In this document: in pieces, positions 2,305 to 61,300 of the stretch
Layout of the letters: the number at the start of each line of letters is the position of its first letter
Position numbering within the stretch: position 1 is the stretch's first letter
NCBI GenBank assembly: GCA_947359465.1
Contig: OX375878.1
Coordinates: 82,997,627-83,061,626, forward strand
Source of the DNA: Metellina segmentata
Taxonomy: Eukaryota > Arthropoda > Arachnida > Araneae > Tetragnathidae
Direction: 5' to 3'
DNA length: 64,000 nt
The notes under the pieces: generated by a model
Told to the model about the DNA's origin: nothing
The model's database searches: none
What the model saw: only the letters and a program-made list of their open reading frames with translations
Translations under genes and position numbers: made by a program

Positions 2305-3688
2305 CACTCTATAGCAAAAAAATCGACGCACCAAGAAGGAATCATCCGATTGCTTTAAAATTTCGTATGCAAAAATGTTTTGACCAAATATGCAAATGAT
2401 TAAAATTTGGTGTCCAATGAATTATTAGTGCAATCTCCAGCGCATCGGAACTGCGCATCCAGCAGATGTATATAAGGAGTTGTTCTTGAACTGTTGTTAA
2501 AATTTTCTGCTGCATTGCGATTTAGGATACATTTCAATGACTGAAAAAATGCCTCGCCGCAGGATTCGAGCTGATAACGAGCAACTTTCAGAGTTTGAAA
2601 GAGGTCGTATCATTGGATTGAAAGAGGCAGGTTGGGCAAATCGGAGAATCCCTCGTCATGTGAGTCGAAGCGATGCGGCGATTAGAAGATGCTGGCAAGA
2701 GTGGGTGAACAATGGCAGATTTCAGCGTCATAATGGTAGCGGTCGACATAGGGCCACAACAGATCGCTAGGACAGAGTGATTGTCAGATCAGCTGTCACA
2801 GCGCCTGATTCATCGCTATCAACCATCAGTCGTGCGACCCACACACGAGTGTCCACCATGACCATTCACAGACGGCTGAGAGAGCGAAATCTACGCTCGC
2901 ACCGACCGTTACGCCACCTGCCACTCACGCATGTACACTGTCGAGCCAGATTATAGTGGTGCTTGGCTCGATCAGGCTGGAATGATGCTAACTGGGGACA
3001 TATAGTCTTTAACGACGAATCCCGCTTCCAACTGTATCCTGACGATCATCGAAGACGTGTCTTCAGAAGCCCAGGGGGCAGCGTGCCGATCCTGCTTTCA
3101 CTATTGCACGCCACACGGGCCCTCAACAAGTAGTTATGGTCTGGGGTGCCATTTCCCTTGATAGCCGGACCCCTTTGGTCGTCATTAGAGGTACACTTAC
3201 TGCACAGCGGTAAGTTGACGACATCCTGAGACCTGTTTTGCTACCGTTCCTTTCGCAGTACCCTGGGCTTATTTTTCAGCAAGACAATGCCAGACCACAT
3301 ACGGCACGTGTTGCTATGAACTGTCTTCAAGCTTGTCAAACACTTCCTTGGCCAGCCAGATCACCAGATTTTTCTCCCATCGAGCATGTCTGGGATATGA
3401 TTGGAAGGCGACTGCATCCGGTAGGGAATGTTGATGACGTAGTCCGACAATTGGAGCAAATTTGGCAAGAAATACCGCAGAAGACCATCCGGGAGCTTTA
3501 TCAGCTTGCATTCAGGCTAGAGGCGGGTCAACACCTTATTGAGCTCGTTACTGTAACTCTGAAATAAATTATTCAATTGTTCTGAAATTTTAATCATTTT
3601 CTATTCTGTACATAATTTTCCTATCCACCAATTTTTGTCTCCATCGGACAACTCCTTCTTGGTGCGTCAAATTTTTTGTTATAGAGTG
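2305..3688 (+). mobile_element. Tc1-like transposon relic, both TIRs and TA duplication
   Basis: Ends at 2305 (CACTCTATAGCAAAAAAATC) and at 3688 on the minus strand (CACTCTATAACAAAAAATTT) are inverted copies over about 45 bp with few differences. TA flanks both sides (2303-2304, 3689-3690). Total 1,384 bp. The interior encodes a decayed Tc1-type transposase. The copy cannot encode an intact protein. Confidence 0.92.
2537..3567 (+). pseudogene. Tc1-like transposase pseudogene
   Basis: Cut-and-paste transposase of the Tc1/mariner superfamily. The N-terminal part (2537-2767) shows a paired helix-turn-helix region including QLSEFERGRIIGLKEAGWAN and ends at an in-frame TAG. The middle, about 2771-3237, retains FNDESRF (first catalytic Asp) and VWGAIS but carries another stop and frameshifts. 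The C-terminal part (3238-3567) retains FQQDNARPHTA (second Asp) and SPDFSPIEHVWD (Glu); I count 32 residues between that Asp and the Glu. Similar copies are, from memory, common in orb-weaver spiders. Inactive. Confidence 0.9.
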
Positions 3689-4467: not shown

Positions 4468-5790
4468 CCAAGAAGTCGTTATTGGAGTATAAAGCTTAAA
4501 ACTAAATTAAAAAACAAAACAAAATATTTTACACTTTTTGTCCTCAAGAGTAAAATAAATATTAAAATTAAGTAGTAGGGCATTTTTTTGGAAAAAGTGC
4601 AATAGTGCAAATTTCTTGGAGTATCTATTGGAGTATCTATACTGTTCAAGGAACTTGCATTTTTTTTCTAGTTTAAAATCGAATTTGAAAGTATTGGTTC
4701 TAAAAAAAGAAATTTTATTAAATTTAATAATTTCCTCTGGAATAGTGGAAAATCTTGGAGATGTCATGGAAATATTGAACGAAAACAAGTTAAATTTGAT
4801 GGTATAATTTTCAAGCATTCGAAGAAAAATTCCATTGCAAAAGAAGTAGATCAGTGCACGTGAAGAGAAGTGGTATCATGAAACATATTCGTTATATCCT
4901 TAAAACCAGGCTCGTTAAATTATCTTTTCGGGCCCAGCGGATGTTTAACTGCAGCCGTCTAATGCTAAAATTCCAAAGAAATATTTTCATGGTCGAGCAT
5001 CGAGAGAAAACTACACATATAATGTGAAGCGAATCAAAGGGCTTTCTCAGGGAAAAAAAGAATTCGATTAGTGGCCTACATTAATCAACTTCGTAAATTT
5101 TGTAAATCGATTATATTTGTAGATGTACATAAGTTCAAAATTTTTAAATTGATGGCAAGCAAATGGTGCGATAAAAGCAAGCAGAATGGCACAGATGGCG
5201 CGATATAGCCTGAAAAATTTCACTCCCACGAAATAAATAAGACGATGATAGCAAGTGAACAGTGTTAGAAATATACATTTGATTGATTGTAAAATGGTCA
5301 AATATAGTACTTGTATATTCCGGAAGAAAATTTAAAAGAAATGCTCAAAAATGACAAATTTTAAACTTTATCAGAATTACAATCCTACGCATTATGTCTA
5401 CATTTGTGTGTTATTAGACCATATACCATTAAATTAAACTCGTACACAAAGTCTGACTTTAATCTTATTGAAAATGTTTGGGATTTTTGCCAATATAGAA
5501 TTAACAAAATTAAAAATTTCTATGTAAATTAATTTTGAGAATTAATCCTTATATAAAATGAGAAAAATATAGATCAAAGTTTATGAAAATTATTTCAAAT
5601 CAATGCCAAATATATTAAGTGAAGTCATTAAATGCAAATTAAAAACTTAATTTCTCGCCAATTACCCCGCATACTTTTCTAATCTTTATTTCCATTACAA
5701 ATACAAGATGAACAGCATTCCACGTTTCTTAATTGTTTTTATTATTTTACATTTTTTAGTAGATTTTCCTTAGTTCTAATATATTTTATA
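4468..5790. other. Intergenic, AT-rich, no gene recognised
   Basis: Very AT-rich. Reading frames here are low-complexity (Phe/Lys/Asn-rich) and match nothing I recognise. No terminal repeats were identified. Confidence 0.4.
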
Positions 5791-6045
5791 CTAGCAATAC
5801 CCGCACGGCGTTGGCCGTGACAAAGTTATGCTTTTAAAAAAGTCAACCTCACTGATTCCGACAAAACCAAATTTTACAGAAATAAACAAAAAATTTCTAA
5901 AATAATAATTAAATTTTTTTTTTAAATAAATAAAAAAAAATAATAAATAAATTTTAAAATGTTCTAGAATAATTTTTTAAATTCTGGCTTCGAGGTGCAT
6001 TCAGACACGTTTAGGACTACCTGTGTGCCAAATTTTATTACTGTA
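5791..6045 (-). mobile_element. Helitron-like element 3' end, truncated
   Basis: Read on the minus strand the sequence ends with hairpin CACGGC-CAAC-GCCGTG, then CGGGTATTGCTAG, then T: a perfect 6-bp stem 9 bases before the terminal CTAG, the textbook Helitron 3' end. Internal sequence resembles the start of the other copies (ACACAGGTAGTCCTAAAC region). It stops at 6045, where a second element's CTAG begins. Confidence 0.7.
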
Positions 6046-34300: not shown

Positions 34301-37300
34301 CATGACAGACTCCAGAAGAACCTCTCCCAGCCCAGTATAATTGATGCTAGGTACAGGGTTGCAGTCTGAGCATTGAGATATGTTGCTCTAAAGTAAGTCC
34401 TGAAAGATTAAGTGTTGTCAGAATTATTCTCTAGTTTGATATCACCTTTTCCCAATCTTAAAACTTGAAAGTAGTTTATATTGAAAGAAGATATTTTAAA
34501 AGTGTTGTAACATATATCTACTAAGTAGGCTTTCTGAAGAAGATTAAGGGGACTTGGAAACTTAAATCACTAATAGAATAAAAGTATATCAATTTTAAAG
34601 TTTTCATAAATAGTGTGTGGTTCCCAATAAATTAATTTATTGTGGTTAAAGCATTTTCAGCCTTTGGTTTCATCAAAACATTCTTAAATCAGGTCATTAA
34701 TATGTTTTCAATTTTTAGCGGATCCTGAGCAAGGATCGTGGGAAAGTGGACTCTCTTATGAAAGCCGATCCCTCTTGTTTAAAGCAGTGCACAATTTAAT
34801 GGAAAGGTTAGTTAAATATAACTTTATACTGTGAATAAAAATTTTATGAGATAAATCTGTTTAGTTATGTATGATAAAAATTTAAACCATTATTTTTCTT
34901 TAGGAGTTTACTGTCACGGGGCTTTTCAAGAGTTCATAAATGGTTTGTGCAGCCTTATGATGGTAGTGAGAAGAGCATTAGGAGGTAATTTTGCATATTG
35001 ATCTTTATGTTCATTTTGAAACATTGGTATTTATAAAATTAATCATTTAAATCATGTCTTGCTTTTTTAAAATTTCAATGCCATGTGGAAATGCATTTTA
35101 TTTCATATGTTTAATTTAAGGGTTACGAATTTCATGTTGACCTATTTTTAAAAGGTTGTCTCGTAGAAACTAGGTTTTAAATCTATGATTTTCCCAAGTA
35201 TGAGTCAGATGATTCATCTCAGCATAAATTAAAAAAATTATCCAGGAAATATTGAAAATTCCCTGGTTTTATGCACCAAGGCATTTTTCAATTACCTTTG
35301 TTGTCAATTAATTGAAAAAATTATCTATGTCCTTTATGGACATAGCCTATGCATTAAAATAATATTAAATATTTTCCTTCCAGCCCCCAACTCTCTTTTA
35401 CATTCAACTTCTTTATCCATGGTGAAAGTACAGTATGTGCTAGTGTGGATGTAAGACAACGAATACCAGTGTGTCAACTCACACGTCAGCACCTATCTTT
35501 AGCACAAGGAAGTCTCTCTGGACTAAAAGGTAAAAAGATGTATTTCTGGAATTTTATATGCTCGAAAGTCTTTATTTTTAACTTTTGTAATTAAGCATGC
35601 TATTTAGTAGATTTAAAAAAAAAAACTCATTTAAAAACTTTATTTAAAATTTTTTGTATATTCATAAAATGTATATTTCTAATTTCTACTGTTTTTCGTA
35701 GTGATACTTTGCCCTTCCGGAATGGCAGGCACATTGACAGGGCAGAGCTACAAAGACGATTTAACCACACAAAGGTTACTGAGTGAATGGAATAATTTTT
35801 ATCCTGTTCGAACCAAAAGCACGAAAGATTTACCTGTGGATGATGATCATGTCATGTCTGTTGTGGAAGTCATTGTTGGTTAGTTGTGCATTTGTCATTC
35901 GTGTCTTTTGAATCTCATCACTTTTTTGCTTAAGACTTCTGGTTTGATGATTTGCTCTTATTTTTCTGAGTAAGATGCTTATGACCTAAAAGTTTAAAGT
36001 TTAGAAACAGTAATTTCACTTCAGTTTGAGATATGTATCTTATTTTCAGCCTTTCAATGTATACTTTTATTTACGTACTGCTGCCATGCACGCTATAAAC
36101 TTGAAAATAATATAGAATGCGACTGAATGAAACATCTTATTTTTTCCATTGTTGTTTATTTTTTTGCATATCCTACACAAGGTGAATCTTATAATTAGTC
36201 TCTTGTTAAAAAGCATGACTAGAGTGATGTTTATTTCATATGTAACATGTGCTAGGTATTTAAAATTTCTTGGATTTTTTGTGAGTATTTGAAAACATTG
36301 CAGTGAAAAAGTATTGCTGCTTCGAATTTCTGTTTCATTTTTACTATCTTTATCACTTAATCTATTTCTTTATGTAATACTGGCCAGCCTTGATGGAGTT
36401 TTTTTAATACTGTATTTATATCAATTTCAGGAGGGATAAAAATGCGATACCCATCCAGTTACATACTTGTCACTGAGTTTGATGAAAACGCAGCTCTTGG
36501 ACAAAATTCGGGTGTTCCTCAGTTCTCCTCTTTTAGTCACTCATCTTCCAGCTTTTGTGCTTCCCAGCAAAAGACTTCCTTATTAACTGGTGTACTCACA
36601 CCCCCTACATCTCCATGTGACCTTTCCTCCATGACTAATTCTGCATATAGAGGACATCCTTTGGGATCATCAAGTGAAATGTTTGTTGAAAACTATTCTA
36701 CCAATGCAGGACTTTCTACTGCTTGGAAGATAAAAGAAGCTGTTTGGCAAGACAGTGCTTTGCAGGGGAGAAAACAGGCTTCCGAAGGCAGCGAACAAGC
36801 TGGAATTTGGGATTTTAGTGATCCCTCATCATTAGTCAGATGTGATTGCTCAAGGTATTTAATCTTAAATATTTTAGTTTACCTATTATTGTTAATGAAT
36901 TATTCATTTTGTGTCATCTTATCGTCTTATATATGCTTATTATGTGGCCCTTTATTTGTCACAAATTGTGGTGTGGAGTGAAGGTTAATGTTAAATGCTA
37001 TGACACCTATAAAGTTCTCTTCCAGATGTGTCGTATTTTATGAAAAGGATTAAATGTTGAGAAAAAGTTTGAGTGCTTTCCATTGTACTCGTATGATGTA
37101 ACTCGATATATTTAGCCTCTTCAGATGTACTTATTTTCTATAAATGAATTAATTCCATTATATTGTTATGAATTCATGGTTTTATGTTTTTAGGTCAAAA
37201 ACTGTAAAGCAAGAAAATTCAAATAGTGTAAAGATGCCTACAAGTACAAGTTCTTCAAGTCCAGCTGTTACAACTTCTAGCCTACCTGTGTCTGTCGATA

Positions 37301-40300
37301 GTCCAAGTAGTACAACAAATGCTAGCAGCACTACCAATGCAGCTCGAAAGACAGAAAAATCTGATAAACAAAAACAGCAAACACGCTATAGGACATCAAT
37401 ACCTTTTCACAAACGTAGTGCTTTTGATAGTTCTGAAATAGACAGCTTAGCTGCATCATCTGCATTTGTTATGAACTCGGTGCCTGGGACTACAGTACCG
37501 AGCAGTGTTAATACAAACTTTCAGTTCAAAGGTTTGAATCAGTCATTGCGCTCCTCTACTCCAAGCGGCCTTCCACAATTGCATACATCAGTTGTCCAGC
37601 CATCCTCACTAGGTTCTCCCCCTCCGGATGCTCCTCTTCCGGATGGCACAAACTCACAATCAACTGAACCTGCAATGCCTACATTGTCTCCGCATCCTCC
37701 TTCAGTGAAGGAAGAAGAGACCACCCCATCAGAATCTCAGGACCAAAGTTTAGCCACCCAAAGTCCAAATGCCACATCTGATAGCAACAAGGAAAAGACA
37801 ACAAATGATTCGGTATAGTAAAATACTTGATTATCTGCAAATTTAATAATAACATACTCCCCAAATAAAGGTGTGTATGGTTTTTAAATTTTTACAGATG
37901 GGGATTCGAATTATTCTATCAATTATATATTTTTTTAAAATTCCTATAGTTACTGGTGCTATTCCTTTTAGATGCTACTTTAATTTCAAGATTTACAGGG
38001 AAACTTTTAACAGCTTTATAGTAATTATGTAACCATTATTAAGTTGTAAGTAATTAATATAGTGTTTGTATTTTTGGTCGCCATTTGATCCATGTATGCC
38101 AAAGTAATTTAACATTAGAATAAATATGTCTATTAAATCTGATATCTATTAAATAGACTCCTTAAAAATATCACTCCATATGAGAAAGAAATTCTGCCTG
38201 TAATCTTATTGAACAAATGTGAATGTTCGTGTTTCATTTACAATCCTTAAGACGTTGTTTGTGGTACAGTATAATTATATCGTGTATTTTTGTGAATTAA
38301 TATAATTTTTCTTCATCAATTCATTTATAAAATGATCAATTTCCTAATCTAAGAAGGGCTGTGGTTATCCAGTCCGTAGTTACAGATCAGCAAAAAGAGG
38401 ATTGTGACATCGAAACTTAATCATGGGAACTGGTGCACTTTGTTGTGGCCTCAAATGTCCTCACATTGGCATGGTGTGGAGGTTTAATGAGTGGCCACCT
38501 ACTCGGATGTTAACCTCTACATCTACCCATGGTTCAAAATTACGAGGATTTGTCCCGAGATCTTAACCTTTGAAATCGATCCTGGACCATTGCCAATAGT
38601 CTATTATGTTGCTCAGTTCTATGTAAATTCAACTGCCTTCCTAATCTGAACGTAATGCATGGTGATCTCCTTCCATAACCATATCTAGTCTCCTTTTATC
38701 TTGAAATTCCTTTTACTTCTCTCGACTGATAACTATTCACAAGGACTATTTTCTATGTGTACAGAGATGCCAACCTGTGCTGGAACTTTTCAGTAGTGCC
38801 AAAGTAAAAATTCGTCGTTTTCAGTAGTCAAGTAAAAGTTTAAGAAATCGGCTTACATAACACGCATATATCATTAATTCAAATATTTAATTACAAATTT
38901 GAAACATATATGCAACACATTATATTATTTATAATTAGTAAAGTATATCATACATGAAAACATATATAGGACCAATAATTGTGTATGAAAGAATAACATA
39001 AAAAACATTTAATAACTAAATTTAAGCACTCTCCCATTTACAAAAAAATATATAATAATGAAAAAAATAGTGAAATAAGTAAACTAATTGATGTGCTGTG
39101 AAAAATATAAATAAAATTAAATTTTTCCGTAGAAAAATCCTCAATTCCGTAATTTATAGTACCCGATTCACTTCCGTAGAAACTACAGAGAATCTGTAGT
39201 AGTTAGCATCTCTGTGTGTTGTGAACAGATAAGAAATAAGATTTCTCAGACCTTAATCTGTTATATATGTACACTTTCACAACATGTTTATCTCGGGATA
39301 TTATCAGTAAATAATATTTCATTGCAGTACCTAGAGTAAAGGTTCTGGGTTTTAATTTTTTTAAAGGTTCTAAAATTTTAATCACTGCCATTGTGTGCAA
39401 AAATTAAGTGAAAGCATTAAACACTAGGCTTTATGTAAAAATCACCTGGATTTATAATAGGCAATACAGGCCCTATCTCACGTTGTGTGAGCATTGGATC
39501 TGGAAGGTTAAATAAGAAAATATTAATATCTGTAGTAAATCTTTTATTTTTTATTTATATATATATATATATATATATTTCTAAAACAACAAAACATTCA
39601 TAAAAATTATTTTTTAGGTGTCGTCTCCTTTTCAAACAAATGGAATGGTAGAAAACATTAAAACCGAAATAAAATCTGAAGAATCTCCATGTTCGCAAAG
39701 CAACGCAACAAGTAATAATAGTTGGACCCCTGGGGCGCCAGAAGACACCAAACCAGCACCAGGTTCGTCAACACCTGCCCCACCTAACATGCCTGTTCAA
39801 GGATTGAAAAGACCATCATTAGCTGTTTGTTCTCATGAGGATCCACATGATGAATTAGTTATGGATGGCTTGTTGTACGACTATACATTCCTGAATAGCT
39901 CCCTATGGTAATTATTGTGCTGGTTTTTTTTTTTAATTTATTTATTATTATTTTTTATTTATTTTTGCTGATTACAGATATAGGGAAAGTAAAGTTTATG
40001 TTCAGGCTGTCTACCATGAACATTCATAATTTGTATTTCAATTTTAAGTGCTGTTACCTTTTGCTACACATAAAGTTTTCTAAAATTTTTGGTTGTCCAG
40101 AAAAACTTGTGTAATTGTTTCATAAACTTCTACTTTTATATATGGCAATGTCATTATACCTTTTTCGCTTTGTATGTATACACATTTCTTTTAGAACAAT
40201 GAATTACATAGGTTTGGCTTTACCAAGTTTACATTTGAGTCGAGTGGTTTTGAAGAAGTTTTTAAACGACAAGATAGGTTGAAATATAAGCTAAGTATTT

Positions 40301-43300
40301 CCTCAATTACGGATTGTGGTTCTGAATTTATCATTCAGTACCTAAAGCAGTGGTTAAAAGTTGGCAGAAAAAATCGCCTGCTTCGATTGACATACCTATT
40401 TTTGTATATGGCAACTTTTTTCACTGGGTAAGCTTAGCACCTTTTCCACAGATGGAGTCCTCCATGGTCAGCTACCTTCATATCAATCGGTCGCACTATA
40501 TGTGATTTCTTCTTTCAAATATTTATAGCAAGTAAAATTGTAAGAAATATTATTATTAATATTATTATTATTATTATTATTTTTTTTTTGCATTTCAAAA
40601 CTTGAGAATGATTTGGTTATTTTTAACTGAGTATATTCAAGTTTATTAAGGTTTTGTATGTTTTCTTCGATTTTTAAATTTTGAGTTGAAAAAAAAAATA
40701 AAATTTTAAAACAACAATAAAATGTTGGATTTGCTTTGCTGGTCACTTATTTCATAATTTTACTGTCAACATTAAATTTATTTCCTGTTTTTGATATGTG
40801 AACACCTTATACTATAAATTTGAAGTACAATAATAAAATTATAAAGTTTAGTTAAAAAAAAATTTTGTATTGAAATTTCACATTTCATTTATACAAAACC
40901 TTTTATAGGGACAATATGACTGGAAAACGACGAAAATTGTGGCCCAGCAGAAGAATAAAGTCAGAAAATCCAGATAACACAGATCAATATTCATATGGTA
41001 AAGATGGCTGTAACCTGATGCAGATTGATGATACTGTGACATTAAAGCAAAAAGATCCTTACGAATTCAATGATGAATTTGATGAGGACAGTCCGTCTTC
41101 AACTGGTTTTCGAGCAAGATTAGATGTAAGTCTATTAAAAAGTGGATTTTTACTTGGGTGACCCACCCACTCCCTGACCACCTACCAATAATTGACCACT
41201 TTCATGAATTTCTCATTCAAACAAGTCAATAATAAATCAGTGGTATTCTTACACTCGATGAACTGGAATAAATATGCACTGATATAATGTTTCAAAACTG
41301 TAATGAGATGTGTGATAGTCAATTACTGATTAAATCACTATTCTGAACTTGGAAGGAAATTCTATAAAGCCATCAAATATTAAAAATTATACAATTGCAC
41401 GCTACATCATCTTCACCAAATATTAAGTGCAAGAATCCTTTCAAGTCCAATCAGAAATTAGATTCAGGGTAATTTTTTCTTCAATAATGGGTATTAACTG
41501 GTTAATTACTAGCTGGTTTACCTTAGCCTAAAATGTGTGGTTATCTACTTTTATTAAATTCATAAAAAATATCTTGTTGAATCTTAAAAAAATATCTAAA
41601 TTATAGGGACAGATCAGACTAAATATTTCAACTTAGTAATTTATCTATTTTTTTATTTGAGAAAATAGTTTAGTTAATTTTCCTGAATCTATTTAGGGCT
41701 ACTAAAGTCCTTGAAAGTCTACAAAGCACTAGAAAAATTCTTAAACTCATACCTAGAAAAGTACTTTAAAATACTAATTTTTTCATTAATCTTTGAATTG
41801 CCCTTGAATTTAACATAGACTTCTATTTTAAACAATTTCTCTGGAACCTAAAACCTTTCTGATCCATAGATTTTTTCCTTGACTGTTTTTCTAATTTGTT
41901 GTATGCTGATATATGATACAAATTCCTTTTTATTAAATGTACTTGCATAATATTTACTTTAAAATATTTTTTCATAAAATTTTAATTTCTTAGCTTTTGT
42001 CTCAATTTGATTTTCTCTAAAAAGGAAAGCTTGTCTATACAATTTAAGGATCTTGAAATATCCCAGAAAGTATTTGAATTTGTGTAACATTAAAGATTGC
42101 GAACAGTAAAAACATTCTGTTTTCTTTTGATCAAAAATAATTTGAGTCATGGATTACTTTATTTTGTTCCATGAATTTTATGAAAAATCTGTTCTTTGTT
42201 ACTATAGGAAGAAGATATTAAACCTAAAGATCCTGGTTTGCCACCAACTCCAGATTCGCAGATTCTGACTCCTGGTCAAGTTATATCTGCCCCTTTAACT
42301 CCTATTCAGGACCCTCCTAAACCACCTTCTAATGGAGAGCAGCCTGTATCTTCACCACTCACTCCTCGAAATCAGGGTTCATGTTTCACAAGTGAAAAGG
42401 ATCTGCAAGTGACTGACAAAGATCTAGATAATTTATTTGAATCTTCTTCATCTGATGACAGTGCAGATGATGTGGTATGAGTTAATTTAAATAATTTCTA
42501 TTCATAAAATTGTATCTTGGAAGTTATTTTTTATGTGCTTTGCATGATTCGTGAAAACTAATTTACTTGTGTAAGATTTTGAATCCTCAGTTATATCAGG
42601 CTCTTAAAATCCTTTTCTAAAATTTCCTCCTTGTATGTAAACATTTAAAAAATTTCCCTGTTTTCCTTCATTTCAATTTTTATGTAGTTTGTTTGGTTTT
42701 ATTCATTTTATGTGTAATGCTCCCTTTTTTTCTCAAATTTCAGTTCCTGAAAGCAATTTTTTAAATCGTATTTTATGTAATAAACTCATTGTACTTTAGA
42801 TATAGAAGAGTTCAGGAAAAAAATTGAGTTTAAAGTTATTTATTGTACAATCCATTGGCTAAACTGTTGTTCTGAGCAATTCCAGTTCTTTAATGATTAC
42901 TGAAATTTGTTTAGAATTAAGCAAAATGCAATATCCTTGTCATCTGATAATCTAGTTCAAATTACTTCTGCATTTAAATATCTTGGTTAAAATTGCTTCC
43001 AATGTTATAACATACTACATACAGGATCAAGTTACATTGTTATGACCACCCTCTACTTATGACATAACACATACACATGAAGTAATTTATGTCCAAGGTC
43101 AAGTTTTATATGAATGTGATGTAGGCAATCTGCAAACATTAATCATTATTATAACGGAAAACACAAAGTTTATCGAACTTTGTTGAGTCATAATCATTGG
43201 CATTCGAGCCCATGGTGTCAATCTCTATTATTATAAAAGGAAGTGGCTCTCTGTGTGTAAGCAGTGTCCTGGCGAATCTATGGCACTTACAATAATGAAA

Positions 43301-46300
43301 TTTGGTACACAGGTAGGTCTAATTTTTTTGCGAATTTTGTGTCCAGCCTGAATTTTAAAATTTAATCTAGAAAGAACATTTTTAATTAATTTATTAGTTT
43401 TTTCTCCTCTGCCCTTTTCGGGAATGTGATGTCATAGTTTCCTCGGTTGGAAAAAAGAGAAATGATTTTGTGTTTTTCGACCTCGGAACTGTGCCAAGGT
43501 ACGAAATAGCCGACATCACATTGAAGAAAAGACAGATTCCATGTTCTTCGTCCTATTTTTACTTCTTAATGGATTTCCGATTCTAGATTGTTTTAATTTA
43601 CGTTATTGATTGGTATCACTTTCTTGCTAACGATTTCAACTTTGTCACAGGCAAACAATATTTGAGGTTTTCTATCTGTGATCATTAAAATTAAAGGAAA
43701 AAAATAAATTTAGGATCTGATTTCTTCACACTTGTGATTCTAAGGAAAACAAATATAAATAACTGCCATTAAATTAATTATAAAATGTTCTAGATTTAAT
43801 TTTAAAATTTGGACTTCGCACGAAATCTGCATAAAATTAGTACTACGTGTGTGCCAAATTTCACTTCTGTCTCTGAGTCCTATTGATTCATCTGAACACT
43901 GCAGACAGACACAGGCCTCCTTTTAGAATAGTAAAGACTACCACACTTTAAATTGTAACAAGTGCTGAACCATTAAGTTTTTAGCTTGTTTACTGTAGGT
44001 TGTATGATGTAAGACGTTGACTGAATTAGAATATGTTAATAATGTGTATAAGTAATATTTGTTACCCATGGTCAAATGGGTTTTGTTCTCGGAGAGGGTT
44101 TTCAAGTCGTCCGGTGTAAGAAAAAAAATATAAAGATGTAGGAATACTAAACAACGGTAGTTGTCTACTAGTCTGGAAAGAACTCATTATAAGAGCAACG
44201 AGACTGGTAGGAGTCAGTTGCATTGTAGTAGGAATGCAAGGCAAGACTGTCACGAGCCAGTCACATTCCGGTATTCAGTTACGAGAAAATTAATAGAACA
44301 GACACTTTTTCCCCTGGACGCCATTGAGAGCTGACGTATTTTTTCCGAGCAGAGACGACTGCTGCAGATAATGACGGAACTGTTTTAAAATATAACTCAA
44401 CTGTACATAATAATTGTGGATATTTATTCATTAAATGTCAATGTGCTGTAAGATTCGAAGTCTTTAATATAGACCTTACCAAACAGAACAACACGAATCT
44501 TACAAAGATATGGGTAGAAAACGTAAAACCGAAGCAGAACGTGATCAGGCTAAGCGTAGAAAGATTGAATACAATCAGAAATATAAGAAGGAACGATCAA
44601 TAGAGACCAAGGCGTATGATCGTGAAAGAAAACGAAAAGCCCGTTCGAAGCCTAAAACGTCTCGAATCTACGGCGTCTGCTCCAATGTTTGCATGGCTTC
44701 ACGAACGAGATGAGAGTTACAGCTATCAGTTCATGTATCACAACGTCCAATCCCTCCAAGTGCATCATGAAGACATTGCCTGTGATCATAGTTTCATGCA
44801 TAGCGATTTTCTATTGTTGGCCGAAACGTGGACGATTCCAACCGATCGCTTCAAGTTTCAAGACTTTAAATTGTGCATCGAGATTCATTCGAGCCAAAGT
44901 CGCACGAGAAAGCACAGCGGTGTTGCCATTTACGCCAAGAATAATATTGAAACACAGGAAGCTCTACAGTTCCCAAATTATGACTTGGGAGTTCACATTG
45001 TTGTCGTCTATTTAAAAAACAATGTTCGTTAGGCCGTACTATATGCCAAGCCAGGTTCGAGTACAGATGACATTTTAGAAGCGATCTCAGAAGCATTGGG
45101 CACAGATTGTGACGAGTATAAATCAGTCTTGGTTGGAGACTTTAATATCAACATGAACACTGAAGATGGGAAAGAATTCTGCGAAGTGTTGAGAGAAGTC
45201 TATTGGTTGGATCTAAAGACAAATCCTAAATATTGGACAACGAGAGGCAGAACTTCGATTGATGCAATCTTTTCCACGCACGATTTGAAATGTTGTGGAG
45301 TTTACGAGAGTACGTTTAGCTATCATGTTCCGCTTTACGGAAGACTAACATAAAAATTTAAGCAACTAGTTATATATCTATTATAAAAATTAAAAAAAAA
45401 AAAGCATTTGACCATGGGTAACTTGTAATTGGCTTTCAAGACAATTACAGATGAAGTTTTTTTTAAATTTCTTTGCTTACAAATTTAAGAAAGTTTCATG
45501 CTTAAGAAAGTTTTATCTTAGTAACTATACTTAAATCAACCGTAATTTGGTAGTTTTGGAGTAGCTGGAATGTACATTGAGAATTGAAATTGCGTGGATA
45601 GTTTTACCAGTGTTGATGAAAAATAAATTTTCTCAAAAAATTATGAACTCTATTTTAATCTTAGGATCCTTCGACACCAATGTCAGCCAAATTATGTGGA
45701 ACACCTGAGGAACCTACATCTGGGAAGAGTAAAAACAATTCCTTTTCATCAGGAATGTTATGTAAGTTTTAATTAATTTTTTTTTGCTATGGTACAGGGA
45801 TTTTCTTACAGTGTTAATAAAAGGACAGATGGTGATGTCTAAAACAAAATCTTAAAAGATTAAAGTAGCTCCATGTAACCAAGTAATTACAATTGTTTGT
45901 AAATCCTTCTGTTTACAATGTGCTTTAAAAGTTTAAATTCTAGATGTTGTATTATTTTAGTTGAAAATTTAAGTGAAATGATTTTACTCTAATGTTATTT
46001 CTTTTTGTGGCAATAGAGAGCTTGCATCAATTTTGATACTTTATGTTTCATGCAAGGTTTGGTTTACAAAATTCACCTTTAATTATAGTAAGCCTTCTTT
46101 TTCTTTTAAGCAAAGTGTTTCAAAAGTAGAAAACCTTAATTTTTAAAATTTTCCTTTTATTGAAACAATTTAATTTATTGAATATCCTAATTATAAGAAT
46201 GTACAAGCGTTATTTTTTTATTATTGCTTTGTCTCACTAATTTAAGTTGGGGGATATGTTCAGTCAAACAAAATGTCTAATTCATTTTAGATGGAAATGG

Positions 46301-49300
46301 GAATCTAATACTACTAAGTTAAAAATGGGTTTTTGATTTGTTGTTATTTTAGGTGCAGCTGAATTGACACGCATGTTTCCAACACCTCCATCTTTAGAGC
46401 ATAATACTGCTCAGTCTCCTTCTGGTCCGTTGTGTGGTACTGATTTGTCTACCATAGATGGCACAGAATGTTTCCGTGATCGTTCAGAAGGCTATATGGA
46501 TGGTGGCTGTAGTCCATATTATGAACCAGTCAAAGTATGTTTCACTCTCCGTTTTTTAAAATATGAATTTATTTTGTTACCATGTTTAATGTTTTACGTA
46601 ATAAATAATTATGTTAATAAGTCCTTCACATGTTAGTATTTTGTTTTGTATTGTGTTTTCGAATCAAAAATTGGTGAATACATTTTATTTAACTGATCTC
46701 CATTGCTTGAATTTCAGGATTGGTCTTTTGTGTATAAATTACCTGTACAATACAAGTTTGTTGGTTCTAAACGATATGCTCCACTGTCCACTCTGCCAAG
46801 TCAAGTACAGCCTCTCTCATTGTCCACAGAACATGTTTACAAGCCTTCTTGGACGAACACTACTTCATCTTCACCTCTTCCTGCCAATACAGCATCACCA
46901 AACTCTCAAGTAATGGCTCATACAGAAAGACTGTCATCTAATTCAAAGTTAGTACATTTTCAAATATTTTCTTTACTTGAGTAGAAATTTCTAAACATGG
47001 ATTGATAAAGGGAAGAAAATATTCTGGAATATGAGGCTTCCAATATTCTGGTTCCTCATATACTAAATGTAAATAGAAGTTAAACGTTTTGGGAAAGAGT
47101 GATTGGTATTAAAAATTTCAAGGAAAATTAGTGTGTGTTCTGGGGGTATTTGTAATTTGACAAACATACTTTTAAAGTTGCTTTATAATATTTAAGTTCT
47201 ATTATACAGTTTTTTTCCTTAATAAATTCATACTTTCATTCAAATTTTGTATTATACTGGCAAAATTAAGTTCACGTAAGATATATTCGACAGCTTCAGC
47301 AGTTTTATAATTCCTACAATTTACTTTGGATACATGATTATTGTGTTGTATCCATTCATATATTATCATTCCAGAAAATGACAAAAGTACAAAATATAGT
47401 ACTAAGCTAGCTACCACAAAAGAAGATTATGCATTTGGTAATTAGATTGCAATGTCCTTTTTTAAGTTCATTGTAAAATTGACATGACTCAAATCGTAAA
47501 ATTGACTTAATTAAATCAACAATAAATTCTTGAACTCAGTTTTCCTTTCAAATTTTTTTACTGCTCTTGAACCAAGGGTGTGATATTTCTAAATTCCTTC
47601 ATCAAGAGAAGGATAAGAAATTAATTTAATGTCCTTAATGCATAAAATTTTGCCAAATAAAATTTTCTTTTCTTCAAAATTCTGTTACGTGACACACAAA
47701 TAACAAAGAACTTGTTTTAAAATTAAAAGTCATCAGTACTGAGTTTTAATTTTTCAAAAGTCCTCATGGGTCCTCATGATAAAAGAGATTGACAAACTTC
47801 TATTTAAAATTTGCTTTCTCCAAATAGCCTGCTGCAGCTTCAAATTGAACCCCTACAGCATGTCTTTTTAAGATCCGCAGATTTCAAATCCGTTAAAATT
47901 TGTACTCAATCTTTAACGGTCTAGGAGATAGAAAAAAGAACTAGTGACTCCAGTTAAAAGATTATTTGTTTTTATCGTCTCTCTTGAAAATCAATCCTCC
48001 ACGCAACATCAAAACAATCCAGCCAAAATGTCGCTGTGGAATCGTTTGATCGGAGACTATGCATTCCCATTTAATTGCGAAGAGCGAAATGAAAACATTG
48101 GCATGGTTTCAAAGGCTGACGTCAGTAGTGACAATTGTGACGTGACGTCAGAGGGGAAAATAGAAGAATTCCGTTGTTCCTTCCAATGCCGGAGCAAGAC
48201 GAAACAATGTTCCAAAAGAGAAAAAAGCTATTAGATTAAATTTTAAAAATTCGCCTCAATCCAAAAATTGCAAAAAAATTGGACTACCTGTGTACCAAAT
48301 CCCATTACTGTAAGTGCCATAGATTTGTCAGGACTTTGTTTGTTTCTTGTGATCTAACACTTCCTTTTATAATATTAGAGATAAATCCAAATTTTATGTC
48401 ATGCCCAAAAGTAAAAAATGCAATAAGTATGCAGTTGTTTTTGTGAATGACAAAACTTACAATGTGTTTCAATCTAAGTGTTATTATCTCTATTAATCCA
48501 TGTTTGTATTCCAGTTCCCAATTTCCAATGATGCCAGCGAGTGAAGGGGAAAGAATGGTGCCGCCCATGTTTGCTGTGGAAAATCCTATTGATCAACGAA
48601 CTTTGCCTATGAACTATGAATTGCAAAGCCCAGCGTCCAGTGCCTCATCCTACTTGAACAAACATTTGAATTCGGTTGATAGTAGTGGCACAGCTTCCTC
48701 AATACCGGAGGCGCATAGCCTGCTGGTAAATCTCGTGATAGCTGACTCTATGCTCAATCTCTTCAAGGACCACAACTTTGCAAGTTGTACTCTTTGTGTA
48801 TGCAATATGAACACCAAAGGTGCGGATGCTGGCATCAATTTGCCGAGCAGCCTCATCCCTTCCGGAACAGACGAGCCTCAATACAAATGTACATGTGGTT
48901 TCAGTGCTGTCGTGAATCGTCACCAAAGTCATCGTTCTGGTATTTTCTATGAGGATGAACTTGATATTACGGGTCATCGTTACGAAACATATTACTGTAG
49001 AAAAAGTCTTTCTCTTGTGGAGAGTGTTTCCTCTAAAAAAACTGAAATGGGTCAGAGTTTAGAGGAAGAGACAAACGCTCAAGTGGACCATGTGCCGCAT
49101 AACATTGTGGACCTGATAAAAGTGCAGTGCTCACACATATATTCTTCATTTTCATTGTTTCACAAAGCAGAACAGTTTCGCCATTTTGATAGAATGAATT
49201 ACCATTACAATGCTCTGGAAATATCAGATGGGTGCGAAGTGTGTTTTCTTGCACTCGATACAGGTAGACAAGCTGTTGACAATATGAACAACAACAAAAT

Positions 49301-52300
49301 GGATGAAAATTTGAAGTCTTCCTGCCTTCATAAGTGGCCTTATCTTGCAGGTAATTGAAGTTATTTTAACTTTAAGCTGTGTTGATGTGGATTTGTGTCA
49401 TGTGTCGTTTTTAAAATTGAAAATGTCAAATTTTTGTTACAAACCAACACAATATATTATTTTTGTGATTGCATGTTTCACTGCAATACATAATTTTAGA
49501 AATTGTTTTGTTAAAGAAAGTTTACACTTGTGTTATGTCATGATATTTTAATGAGATACTGCGAATTTACTAACAAAATGTTAGTCAAAAAATGTGTTAA
49601 AACCTCTAAAATTAATTCACATCTAGAACTGATGCTTCAGACCAGTCATTCCCAAAGTGGTCTATATCGACCTCAATGGTTTCATGTCAGTCAGAAAAAA
49701 ATTGAGGGTGCAGGAGATCAGATGTAAATGGGGGGTTCACGAATCTGGCAGGCCGTCACCAAAATTTTGGCCTCCCATTAATGTAATATCCCACCTAATA
49801 CTGGTATTACCTATGTAGGTACTTACGTAATACTTTCTTATAATAGAAATTGAAATACATGTCTTATCATATTTAAATAGCTTAATTTTTGTTCTGCGAA
49901 AAATGCTACTAAATATGGCCGAATCTAAAAGAAATGTAGGCAGTACAGCGTTGATTACTTAAAGTTTGACTTCATTCCATCATTGTGGGACAAACACCTG
50001 CCCAAGTGCCTTTAACAACAAAGAATTAAGCAATGACGCTATGAAACCATGCAAGCTAGAAGATCATCTGAGAAGGTGTCACCCTGATAAAACATGTAAA
50101 GATTTGAAATATTTTCAAACACTGAAAGAAAATCTTCAGAAGAGACCCACAGTAGACGGTATGTTCACTTCGACATCACAAGGGGATGACGATGGTTTAC
50201 AGGCTTCTTAACAATATCTCGCTACTCGTAGCAAAATCAAGAAAGCCGCATACTATCTGAGAATAATTTTGCCAGCATTGAAGAGGTTTTAAAAACTGTT
50301 CTACACAAACCTTATGATACACTCAAAAGAATTTCTTTGAGAAACAACACAGTTCAAAGACATCAATGAGATGAGTTATGATGTTGAAAGCTTCTTGTGT
50401 AATTATCTGCCAACGACCAATTTCTCCATACATGGACGAGTCAACTTTACTTGGTAATGAAGCACTACTATTGGCATATACTCGTTTTGTTATGGACCAA
50501 GAAATCCATGAACTGCTCGTGAGGACTTTGACAACAGATACTAAAGGTGAATCCATATTTCATGTTTTGAGCGATTTTTTTTCATGGAAAAAAATTTCTG
50601 TATCAAATATAATATCAGCGCCAGCAGATGGAGCCCCTGCCATGTTTGGGCATTATTGTGGTTTTATCAGCTATTTAAAACAAAATGTACCTGGGGTGTT
50701 TGCAACTCACTGCATCATCCATCTACAAAATTTAGTTGCCAAATATCTTCAATTCGTCATGAACGCTGGAAACAAATTTCGGAGCAACACGCTAAATACT
50801 AGGTTGTTTGTGCAGTAGTATGAAGTAAATGACGAGAATTTTCATCGCTTACTCCTTCACGCTGAAGTATTCTGGCTGTCAAAAGGCTAATGTTTGACTT
50901 TTTGAGACTGGAAACCAGACATTGCTTATTTAACAGATTTGTTTGCTAAATTTAATGAGGTTAACGTTCAGTTACAAGGGGACAGTCTAAATTTGATCAA
51001 AACAAAGTCCATTATTGCAGCTTTTATTTCCAGAATGAAACTAATGAAGCAAAACACTGGTTGACACTAATTTTCCCAGTTTCCCAATTTGGCACAGACA
51101 AAATGCCACGATGATGATTTTTCAGCCTACGTTCAACATTTAAATGTCCTTCGCTCAGACTTTGAAATTAGGTTTGAAGATGTATAGACTATGGAAATAC
51201 CACAGTAGATTATCAATCCATATGGTGACATTGAAGAAATAGATGGCATGTTACAAGAACTGGTCTAAATAATCAACAACAAAGAAATTAAGGTTCAGTT
51301 TAGTAAGAGACATCAACAATTTTGTCTTCAGAGAGACATACTTATTACATATCCTGCATTATGGTCTATTGCTAGTAGGTTTTGATAGCTTTTCCATCTT
51401 CACACCTCGTGGAAAGGGATTTCAGCGTGGTTGCCAATTTCCTTACGAAAAAAAAAAGAAACAGATTGGAAATCACTCGCCAAGAAGATTTAAGGTTAAA
51501 CCCGACTAAATTGAAGCCAAATATTGAAATTTTACTATAAAAGCATATGTAATACTATTAAGCATTTATGTAAAAATGTTACTAGATTTGCATTTTGTGT
51601 CGTTTTAGTTAATGTATAACTAAAATGTGACGTACCATATATTTCCGTGTATAAGCCGAGAATTTTTGGAACATTTTCTAAAGCTAAAGTGGGGGTGTCT
51701 GCTTAATACGGATCCGCTAATTTCTACAAAAACGAAGGTACTTTTCCGTTAGCCGGGCGCAAGTGATAAATCGCCTAGTACAGCACACAAAATAATAATT
51801 GAATATCGTAATTAATAAGCACATAAAAATAACAATTGGAAAGAGAACATTTTTTGATACTATTGTTGGATTCGGATCTCCATCTAGTGGCAGCAACTTG
51901 ACGAAATTTTCGAATTCTTAACGTGCGATTAGCGATTTTTATAGCAACTCCAACAGGTGTTGGGAAAGCAACCCTACTTTTTTACTTCGTGCTATCCGAC
52001 TCGGATCCGGATCCAACAGCTGTTCCAATTTTTAAAATCTTTTAACTATGTTTTGAATGCAGCCTTTAAGCAAAGTCAAATAAGTCATTTAAATCCTTCA
52101 AAGTCCGTGTCCGAATCCAATTTTCCGAATAGCTTGTAAAATTTGCGAAGTTCGAATAATACATAAATTTGCTTCCCGCTCATCTTTGAAACAAAAAATA
52201 AAATAGCACCAAAAAAGTAAGACTAGCACAGATACAAGAAGACAGCAAATGAATGGAAAAACTGTGCTGGAATCAGATAGGATTACTGTAGCTAAGATTC

Positions 52301-58300: not shown

Positions 58301-61300
58301 TTTGTTAAAAGCTCTTCAGACCACTTATGCAATAATAAAATGTGCTATATCATGTTAATACGAATGAAACAAATGTCCCTTGGATTGACGTCATTCATCA
58401 TCTGGCTTTCCAATACTTTTGTACTATGTTACTAAAATTAACTACAGTGTATGTTATCCTGTAAATATTGTAAAAAGTATTTTAATTTAAAATTTTAAAT
58501 ATTTTTCAATATTAATTTTTTTTATTGAAAGCTGCCAAGAAAATACCGATGCAACTTTTATTGCATAAAATATTTTGTTTTTTCGAAACAAGGAGCTTTT
58601 ATTTTTAATAATACAGGATACAATGTTAATCAAGCCGTAGTGATCATGGTAAATCTATTAGACTCGTTTTCATGTTTGCAGTGGAAATAAACTTTTATTT
58701 TTGTGTTCAATCTTGTTTTATCTCATTGATCCATCTAATTTTATTTAAATTTGTTGTGTGACAAAATTAAACACATTTTGAAAAGTGTTTTGTTAATTTC
58801 TTTATAGGAACTGAAGATCAGTGTGAACCTCAACCAATTCCTTCAATCCTGGTTGGTTACGATAAGGATTGGGTAGCTCTATCACCATTTGCCTTAAAAT
58901 ACTGGGTATGTATTACATTTTGTTTCAATGAATAGCAGTGCTATTGTTAGACTAACTTGATCGTTCCTGCTTGGAAAAAATGATTTAGTTCTCAAAGATT
59001 AAAGTAAATAACCTTTTCACACAATTTAAACTAGATTCCTCAAACTTTCAAATACATGAATTTGTTCTATCCTTTTTTATTTTATCTTCTGCTGTGTAGG
59101 GTTAGTTAAATTTGCAATAACTTAAAAATACTTTTATTTAATTATAATTAAATATGGTGCTAAGTCCCAATTACGGAATTGTCCAAAATCCGGATATTTT
59201 GCTAACCATCGTTTTTTCTCTCTCACTTTTTCTATCTTTCTGCCTTTTTTAAGAACAATTTTTAAAGAACAATGCGTTCAACCTGGAAAAAAAATAGATG
59301 AAACAGCGCAAAATAATGAACTTGTTCAGAGTAAATACCACACAGAAAAATTAGAAGATTTTTAAGTAACATTTTTTTGCATTGTATTAAAAAGGTTTTT
59401 TTTTTTGGTTTTAATTATTCCTATTTTTATATCTGCTATTTTCGTATTGCAATGTGTTCTGGATGTAAATAACGCACACAGGGGGTTTTGACTAAAAAAA
59501 TTTCAAATAATCCGAGGTCTGGAGGATACTGGATTTTGGACTTGGCACTGTATCATCTCTCCCTATTAAAAAAGCGATTAGTTTTTAAATTCCTGTAAAA
59601 TCTAAATGTTTTATGTCAACTATCTAAATGGTATTTGAAATGGAGAAGACAATAATCTTCATCAATAGTTTTTAACTAATGATTTACTGTTAAAAACTGG
59701 TTGGCAAGAAACATTTACATGTTAACGCTTCCACACAAACCTGGATGGAACGTATATCGTACTTAGAGTAGAATAGTTTGGTTGGCTCAATTTTACTTAA
59801 AAGTCATGACAAAAATATAACTCAAGCAAAGCATTTTTGCGTACATAATTTCTAAAATGTGTATATAAACGAACTTCTCTTTACTTTTACAGGACAAGCT
59901 ATTATTGGAACCGTATACAACTAGTAGAGACATTGCATATGTTGTTGTGGCTCCTGATAGTGACTGTGTCTTAACTCCTGTAAAAAAATATTTTAAAGAA
60001 TTGAGTACTATTTATGAACTATGCAGGTTAGGAAGGCACTGCCCAATAACAAAAGTGTTACGTGATGGTATTATGAGAGTGGGCAAGGGCACAGCAAAAA
60101 AGTTAGCTGATGAACCTATTGATGACTGGTTTAATATTATTGGAGATGGACCAATTGCAAGCCGGCTGAAGTTGTATGCCCAAGCCTGTAGATATCATCT
60201 TGGTATGTAAATCACTTTCATTAGTCTTCCTATTTTTACTAATTTGTAGTTCGAGTGAGTTTTCTAACTTTTTTATAAATATTTTCTAGCTCCACACTTG
60301 GCTACTCAACCATTTGATAGTAGTCTCATAGATTCTCCACCAATTTTGAAACCACCCGAAAAACCATTGTCTGTAGCCTCACCTCGAACAGCAGGAAATG
60401 AGGGCCAAGAAAAAGAGCAATCTTTTATTAAGCAGGAACCAGGTAATTTTGCAATTTAAGTTTCATTTTACAAAATGATCTCCCATTTTCTTTGTCTAAA
60501 ATTGTATAAAAATAGGCATTGGAAGTTTAGAGTTTGCTTTATTTTTGTAGATATTAAAATAGAAACATCTGGGGCGATGTCAAATGAGCAGCCAACAGGA
60601 TCAACAAGTACAAACCCTGATTCTGCTGATGTAGAGGATAGTCAACAAACGCCCACTGTTGTCATATATCTTGTAGAACCTTTCACGCATGGATCAGCCG
60701 ATCCTGATGTTTATCGGCTAGCTAGTCTTGGGCTTCTGAGGTCTTACACTCACATGTTACAGTTTCTGCCAGAACATATAAAAAATAATATTCATTTACA
60801 GGTATGATATTTGTTTTTATCTTAAGTAAGTTTTAAATATCAAGGCTCTATATAAACTATTGTAGAAATGCATAGTTTTATTAATCATCCAAGAACTTTT
60901 AATGAGTATCCATTCAATATAAAAACTAATAGAGATAATATTGCAGATTTTTTGCTGTAATTAAATTATTTTTTTTTTAGACTTCTCTATTCACAGAAAA
61001 ATTTACAATCACACACACTATATGTCTAAAATTCAGTCTCCTGAATTCAACCATTATTGTTTTATCATAAATAAAAAAATGAAATCAAGATAGACAGGAA
61101 ACTTAATTTACTTTATGTTTACTTTTTATTTAAGCCAGGTACTAGTTAATAATTTAAATTCAGTACGTTTCTTGAATTTCTCTAACACCTATAAATTTGT
61201 CATTAATGCTGTTAATGAGTTTTTGTGTCCCACGTATTTTATGTCGTTTCAGATGGCCAAGTATGGAATAAGAAGTCCTACCTTTCTAAGCTTGTCAAAT

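What the first reader, a model, noticed from the sequence alone, without database searches (positions are those of the whole stretch)
44061..45422. A TIR element with an EEP endonuclease as its only gene
The sequence shows perfect 18-bp inverted termini (GTTACCCATGGTCAAATG) around a single decayed gene: a Lys/Arg-rich N-terminus joined to an endonuclease/exonuclease/phosphatase-type domain with AETW, GDFN, TTRG-IDAIF and SYHVPLY motifs. Known DNA transposons with TIRs use DDE transposases; EEP domains belong to LINEs and to the C-terminus of some PIF1-helicase or Helentron proteins. A short TIR unit with EEP alone could be an internal-deletion derivative that kept the first and last parts of a larger helicase protein, or a distinct element type.
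Basis: partly seen in the sequence, partly recalled or inferred. Interest (0 to 1): 0.75.

Follow-up and report, generated by a model that had tools for sequence, protein, structure and literature searches.

The report
Shrunken copy of a spider Helentron
This is a decayed, internally deleted copy of a known kind of rolling-circle jumping gene (a Helentron), whose larger Rep-helicase-endonuclease relatives sit in the same genome with the same ends, so it is not a new type of transposon.

Summary
In detail: perfect 18-bp inverted copies at 44061-44078 and 45405-45422 around a decayed EEP endonuclease. The interpretation needs correction. The repeats are the asymmetric inverted repeats of a Helentron (Helitron2-like rolling-circle element), not the termini of a cut-and-paste element. 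The left one opens the element and forms half of a 5' hairpin. The right one is subterminal, followed by an 8-bp-stem hairpin (45424-45449) and a T-run. In the same 1.67-Gb genome the 18-mer has 549 matches at up to 2 mismatches, against 28 for the control. Two long copies have the same ends: L020 (5.9 kb) carries DUF6570, Helitron Rep, PIF1 and EEP, and L021 (6.7 kb) is about 99% identical to it. The window copy equals L020-element positions 1-583 joined to 5116-5925: a 4,532-bp internal deletion. The Lys/Arg-rich start and the EEP are out of frame, and a TAG lies at 45030-45032. T lies at -2 in 41 of 41 distinct 5' flanks. Private EEP substitutions look neutral, so I see no sign that 'EEP alone' is a selected element type. 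This matches published Helentrons and their deletion derivatives (HINEs): a new family of a known kind; interest is low.

The parts
44062..45460 (+). Whole non-autonomous Helentron derivative (HINE); the 3' end cannot be placed more closely than within the T-run 45457-45464
   Evidence: Alignment with L020/L021 and other copies
44062..44078 (+). 5' asymmetric inverted repeat, TTACCCATGGTCAAATG
44064..44081 (+). 5' hairpin: ACCCAT / ATGGGT stem using the 5' repeat and the three bases just after it
   Evidence: 6-bp stem, -4.1 kcal/mol; z -1.77, 15 of 200 shuffles fold as well, so modest on its own
44510..44653 (+). Start of the Helentron protein (MGRKRKTEAERDQ...), as in the N-terminal frames of L020 and L021
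44653..44653 (+). Internal-deletion junction: L020-element position 583 joined to 5116, 4,532 bp missing, one shared base
44654..45353 (+). EEP endonuclease remnant with the end of the helicase-EEP linker, out of frame with the N-terminus, with a TAG at 45030-45032
45392..45403 (+). A-tract before the 3' repeat; its length and make-up vary between copies
45405..45421 (-). 3' asymmetric inverted repeat, subterminal
45424..45449 (+). 3' hairpin TGTAATTG...CAATTACA (8-bp stem, 10-nt loop)
   Evidence: 38 perfect non-simple hairpins with stem of 8 or more and loop 3-15 in 64 kb, about 0.04 expected per 60 nt; stretch z -1.58, 12 of 200 shuffles fold as well
45457..45464 (+). 3' boundary T-run
   Evidence: run length median 8, range 2-21, in 39 paired rows

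Best explanation
A non-autonomous, internally deleted copy (HINE) of a Helentron, the EEP-bearing branch of Helitron2-like rolling-circle transposons. The long relative encodes a Rep (HUH) nuclease, a PIF1 helicase and a C-terminal EEP endonuclease. Short copies keep the ends (5' repeat and hairpin, 3' repeat, 3' hairpin, T-run) and would be moved in trans by proteins of long copies, by nicking next to T's and rolling-circle replication from 5' to 3'. The window copy cannot make a fused protein. Shown: ends, domains, deletion junctions, T-rich boundaries. Inferred: trans-mobilisation, the nicking and the rolling-circle steps.
For: L020, with the same ends, carries DUF6570 (1.3e-13), Helitron_like_N (1.9e-22), PIF1 (6.5e-21) and EEP (3.9e-11); L021 has the same ends and is 99-100% identical over the aligned parts. 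The window maps to it as 1-583 | 5116-5925 at 97.6 and 97.9% identity. There are 24 junction types among 43 junction occurrences; the commonest, 225|5181, was found 15 times. 5' hairpin and 3' hairpin. T at -2 in 41 of 41 and at -3 in 39 of 41 distinct 5' flanks. In L011 one copy is inserted into another, which gives a natural empty site; at most 2 bp could be duplicated. EEP relatives are spider PIF1-helicase C-termini. The published Helentron/Helitron2 anatomy is the same (PMC4067079, PMC3627910; passages read).
Against: Neither long copy read is one open frame; both are split over several frames, so no intact autonomous copy has been shown. Each hairpin alone is only modestly better than shuffles (z -1.58 and -1.77). 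No RPA or OTU domain, which some Helentrons carry, was found in the four L020 frames tested. No tree against canonical Helitrons was made. L005 shows only the 3' end within its 3 kb.
Confidence: 0.97

Rival explanations
1. A distinct cut-and-paste TIR transposon whose only protein is an EEP nuclease.
For: Perfect 18-bp inverted repeats, EEP as the only Pfam domain found in the window copy, hundreds of matches to the repeat.
Against: The same ends bound a Rep-PIF1-EEP element; the right repeat is not terminal; private EEP substitutions are neutral; the EEP in the window is out of frame with the N-terminus and stopped.
Confidence: 0.01
2. EEP-only derivatives (above all the 225|5181 lineage, which keeps the EEP from MYHNVQ on) are kept because they supply endonuclease in trans.
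For: 225|5181 is the commonest junction, 15 of 43 occurrences, and 20 of the 28 copies spanning the EEP (L021 and the window among the 28) have no stop or indel in it.
Against: Private substitutions in the EEP are 41 nonsynonymous, 13 synonymous and 3 stop (72, 23 and 5 percent), against a neutral expectation of 69, 28 and 4 percent, so intact frames are explained by youth. Several derivatives cut into the EEP and leave only part of it (for example L036, L012, L037, L027).
Confidence: 0.02
3. The 18-bp repeats fell by chance around an unrelated endonuclease fragment.
For: None found.
Against: 549 genomic matches against 28 for the control; of the 27 loci L001-L028 other than L014 (the window itself), 26 show both kinds of end; the endonuclease is part of the long copy L020 with these ends.
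Confidence: 0.002

Closest known systems
Helentrons and HINEs (Thomas et al. 2014, PMC4067079)
   Same: Rep-PIF1-EEP protein; palindromic inverted repeats near both ends (the mite 3' one lies 38-60 bp from the 3' end, here 36-43); stem-loop near the 3' end; insertion at TT / T-rich sites with variable T's; short copies that are simple deletion derivatives of the long ones.
   Different: Different host (spider-like, inferred) and end sequences; repeat 17 bp against 12-15 in the mite families; 3' T-run median 8, up to 21, against the 2 to 5 T's given for the Culex families; no RPA found in the frames tested.
Helitron2 (Bao and Jurka 2013, PMC3627910)
   Same: Asymmetric inverted repeats: the 5' one at or near the terminus and part of a 5' hairpin, the 3' one just upstream of a hairpin.
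   Different: Carries an EEP domain, which is the Helentron mark; the repeat is 17 bp against 8 to 15 bp reported; the 3' repeat lies 36-43 bp from the end against about 20 to 30 bp.
Spider proteins named 'ATP-dependent DNA helicase' and the like (Caerostris, Trichonephila, Araneus, Oedothorax)
   Same: The same EEP, 49-78% identical to the window EEP; in several it follows a PIF1 C-terminus.
   Different: Annotated as helicases or hypothetical proteins; their element ends were not seen here.
Canonical Helitrons (Helitron1)
   Same: Rep-PIF1 core and a 3' hairpin.
   Different: The element here lacks 5'-TC and 3'-CTRR ends, and has inverted repeats and an EEP.

Membership tests
Helentron / HINE | Long relatives encode Rep (HUH) + PIF1 helicase | tested here: met
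   L020: Helitron_like_N 1.9e-22 and PIF1 6.5e-21; GSPHYHML and a Y...Y stretch seen in the frame (that these are the HUH and Tyr motifs is recalled)
Helentron / HINE | EEP (AP-type) endonuclease fused C-terminal to the helicase | tested here: met
   L020 frame 658-2028 matches the C-terminal part of solved PIF1 chains, then EEP at 3.9e-11
Helentron / HINE | Subterminal/asymmetric inverted repeats, the 5' one in a palindrome | tested here: met
Helentron / HINE | Stem-loop near the 3' end, downstream of the 3' repeat | tested here: met
Helentron / HINE | Insertion at TT, variable T's at the boundary | tested here: met
   T at -2 in 41/41 and at -3 in 39/41 distinct flanks; T-runs 2-21 in 39 rows
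Helentron / HINE | No target site duplication | tested here: inconclusive
   The nested site in L011 allows a duplication of at most 2 bp; the one in L002 cannot be resolved because of T's. No orthologous empty site was tested
Helentron / HINE | Short copies are deletion derivatives of the long ones | tested here: met
Helentron / HINE | Rep-helicase clusters with Helentron/Helitron2 in a tree | not tested
   No tree was built
DDE-type TIR transposon | Inverted repeats at both termini, DDE transposase in long copies | tested here: not met
   Right repeat is subterminal; the long copy L020 carries Rep-PIF1-EEP

The most novel reading that the evidence does not exclude
Derivatives that keep an open EEP from MYHNVQ on (225|5181 lineage) act as endonuclease-supplying satellites that raise the family's insertion rate in T-rich DNA.
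Probability: 0.02. Interest if true: 0.45.

Novelty: new member of a known kind. Interest (0 to 1): 0.15.

Why it matters
It settles that the 'TIR + EEP' unit is a Helentron derivative and not a new transposon class. It also documents a Helentron family with many deletion derivatives in a spider-like genome, relatives of whose protein are named 'ATP-dependent DNA helicase' in public spider records. In the searches made (Helentron + spider, 1 paper, titled on mammalian Tigger elements; Helitron + Argiope bruennichi, 1 paper, a Tetragnatha genome; listings only seen) I saw no description of a spider Helentron; that library holds open-licence papers only.

Tried and rejected
Rejected: distinct TIR element; chance repeats; selection on EEP-only copies. 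Led nowhere: EEP frame 44604-45032 against phage records and viral contigs; Pfam on the 81-aa N-terminal frame alone. One search translated a stretch in the wrong frame and was not used. The first 5'-flank tally was off by a few bases because a fuzzy pattern swallowed flank letters; it was replaced, whose script failed later but printed the flank counts first; the EEP part was rerun. No genome-wide search with the whole element, the Rep family or a protein was answered, so genome-wide numbers rest alone, and no empty site other than the nested ones was tested.

Selection of loci: one search counted 549 places and listed 100, all of them exact matches; I read 46 loci from that list (8 delivered, 20, 18). 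L014 is the window itself and was left out of the counts; L020 is the reference (left out), and L021 was also left out. One search counts only junctions whose two sides lie within 15 bases of each other in the locus, so L007, with about 50 bases between, is not in it. The 18 loci are 1.4-1.5 kb long and some are cut inside the element. Exact matches probably favour young copies.

Full report
Observation. The 18-mer GTTACCCATGGTCAAATG occurs exactly twice in the window, in inverted orientation at 44061-44078 and 45405-45422; up to 3 mismatches give nothing more there, and 0 of 100 shuffles had two matches. Between the two lie a Lys/Arg-rich frame (MGRKRKTEAERDQ..., in the frame 44468-44713) and an EEP endonuclease split by a TAG at 45030-45032 into the frames 44604-45032 and 45033-45353. 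Pfam finds Exo_endo_phos_2 in the second (9e-7) and Exo_endo_phos below its cut-off in both. The Lys/Arg-rich part and the EEP are in different frames.

What the endonuclease belongs to. A protein search with the EEP (stop read as X) gave 9 proteins among 93 candidates; the eight with an organism name come from spiders (Caerostris, Trichonephila, Araneus, Oedothorax), and five of these are named ATP-dependent DNA helicase. In P0001, P0005, P0006 and P0009 the PIF1 C-terminus runs straight into this EEP or its start through a DD....E.KRL linker. The window keeps the last letters of that linker (LKRLESTAS) directly after the Lys/Arg-rich stretch, which already points to an internal deletion.

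The rest of the genome. The window's own genome (1.67 Gb, 173 contigs) has 549 matches to the 18-mer at up to 2 mismatches, against 28 for the control pattern. I read 46 loci from the 100 exact places listed. Of L001-L028 without L014 (the window itself), 26 of 27 show both kinds of end; L005 shows only the 3' end in its 3 kb. The two ends differ. The 5' end reads TT-D-TTACCCATGGTCAAATGGGT..., where T is at -2 in 41 of 41 and at -3 in 39 of 41 distinct flanks, and D is T 19, A 15, G 7, C 0. The 3' end reads CATTTGACCATGGGTAA, then a hairpin (TGTAATTG GCTTTCAAGA CAATTACA), then GATAAAG and a T-run of median 8 (2-21, 39 rows). The 3' region is the same in the 7 sequences aligned, save for a few bases. 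The 5' repeat folds with the bases just after it into a 6-bp stem. Each hairpin alone is only modestly better than shuffles (z -1.58; z -1.77); the window has 38 perfect non-simple hairpins with a stem of 8 or more and a loop of 3-15, about 0.04 per 60 nt.

The parent. L020 and L021 carry the same two ends 5.9 and 6.7 kb apart, about 38 kb from each other and with the same 5' flank, so they look like one insertion duplicated with its surroundings. L020 encodes, over several frames, DUF6570 (1.3e-13), Helitron_like_N (1.9e-22), PIF1 (6.5e-21) and EEP (3.9e-11); its last frame also matches the C-terminal part of solved PIF1 chains (3.2e-10) and, weakly, Helraiser (2.6e-4). L021 was not scanned with Pfam, but it is 99-100% identical over the aligned parts. 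The Rep-helicase frame of L020 has 129 relatives at E up to 1e-10 among 6277 candidates (120 listed), best Araneus ventricosus at 53% identity. Neither long copy read is one open frame, so an intact autonomous copy was not shown.

The deletion. The window copy is L020-element 1-583 joined to 5116-5925 at 97.6 and 97.9% identity, 4,532 bp missing, with one shared base at the junction. One search found 24 junction types in 43 occurrences (L014, L020 and L021 left out): 225|5181 fifteen times, 270|4934 four times, two others twice each, and twenty once. Twenty of the 24 types remove more than 4 kb; the other four (L013, L016, L025, L032) are second, smaller deletions of 47-986 bp. All 24 leave at least the first 200 bp and the last 61 bp of the parent. 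Some copies are nested or adjacent: in L011 and L002 a copy sits in the T-run of another copy. In L011 the host CTTTATATTTTTTTTTC became CTTTATA | element | ATTTTTTTTTC, so at most 2 bp could be duplicated; L002 cannot be resolved because of T's.

Is EEP alone kept by selection? Of 28 copies spanning the EEP (L020 as reference; L021 and the window are among the 28), 20 have no stop or indel. But the substitutions seen in single copies are 41 nonsynonymous, 13 synonymous and 3 stop, that is 72, 23 and 5 percent, close to the neutral 69, 28 and 4 percent under an assumed transition bias. They amount to about 0.3% (57 over 28 x 627 bp). The open frames are explained by youth. This test leans to young copies because loci were picked by exact repeat matches.

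How it works. The anatomy is that of Helentrons as published: Rep-helicase with C-terminal EEP, palindromic inverted repeats near the ends, 3' stem-loop, insertion at TT with variable T's, no target site modification found by those authors, and short copies that are simple deletion derivatives (PMC4067079, passages read). Bao and Jurka describe the asymmetric repeat, with the 5' one in a hairpin and the 3' one just upstream of a hairpin (PMC3627910, passages read); a Fusarium study describes similar ends (PMC5148889, passages read). The window copy would be moved only in trans, if at all; that and the rolling-circle steps are inferred.

Verdict. A HINE of a Helentron family in a spider-like genome; I know of no earlier description of this family, and the two literature searches that bear on it showed none. 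New member of a known kind.

Noticed in passing
window 59869-60207 and 62384-62875 (+): Mediator subunit 13 exons (MID_MedPIWI 1.4e-30, Med13_C 4.2e-37); the element probably lies upstream of them in an intron of the same gene, but the frames tested nearer to it (37153-37815, 42208-42477, 48447-49355) gave no Pfam match.
   Followed up: partly
window 3214-3564 (+): Fragment of a DDE transposase, Tc1/mariner-like by its letters (DDE_3, 2.2e-6, 28.0 bits, just below the curated cut-off of 28.6).
   Followed up: partly
window 50375-50815 (+): 147-aa frame that reads like a hAT/ZBED-type transposase fragment (impression from the letters; no Pfam match at E 0.01).
   Followed up: no
L020, L021: Two long copies about 38 kb apart with the same 5' flank, apparently a segmental duplication carrying a Helentron; L021 has about 770 bp extra near parent position 1666.
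   Followed up: partly
L041 about 126-137, L002, L011: Head-to-tail (L041) and nested (L002, L011) copies, joined or inserted at T-runs.
   Followed up: partly
L042 1100-293: About 800 bp of other sequence lies inside the 3' part of this copy, near parent position 5730.
   Followed up: no
copies read, parent about 5844-5870: A-rich tract just before the 3' repeat varies in length and make-up between copies.
   Followed up: no
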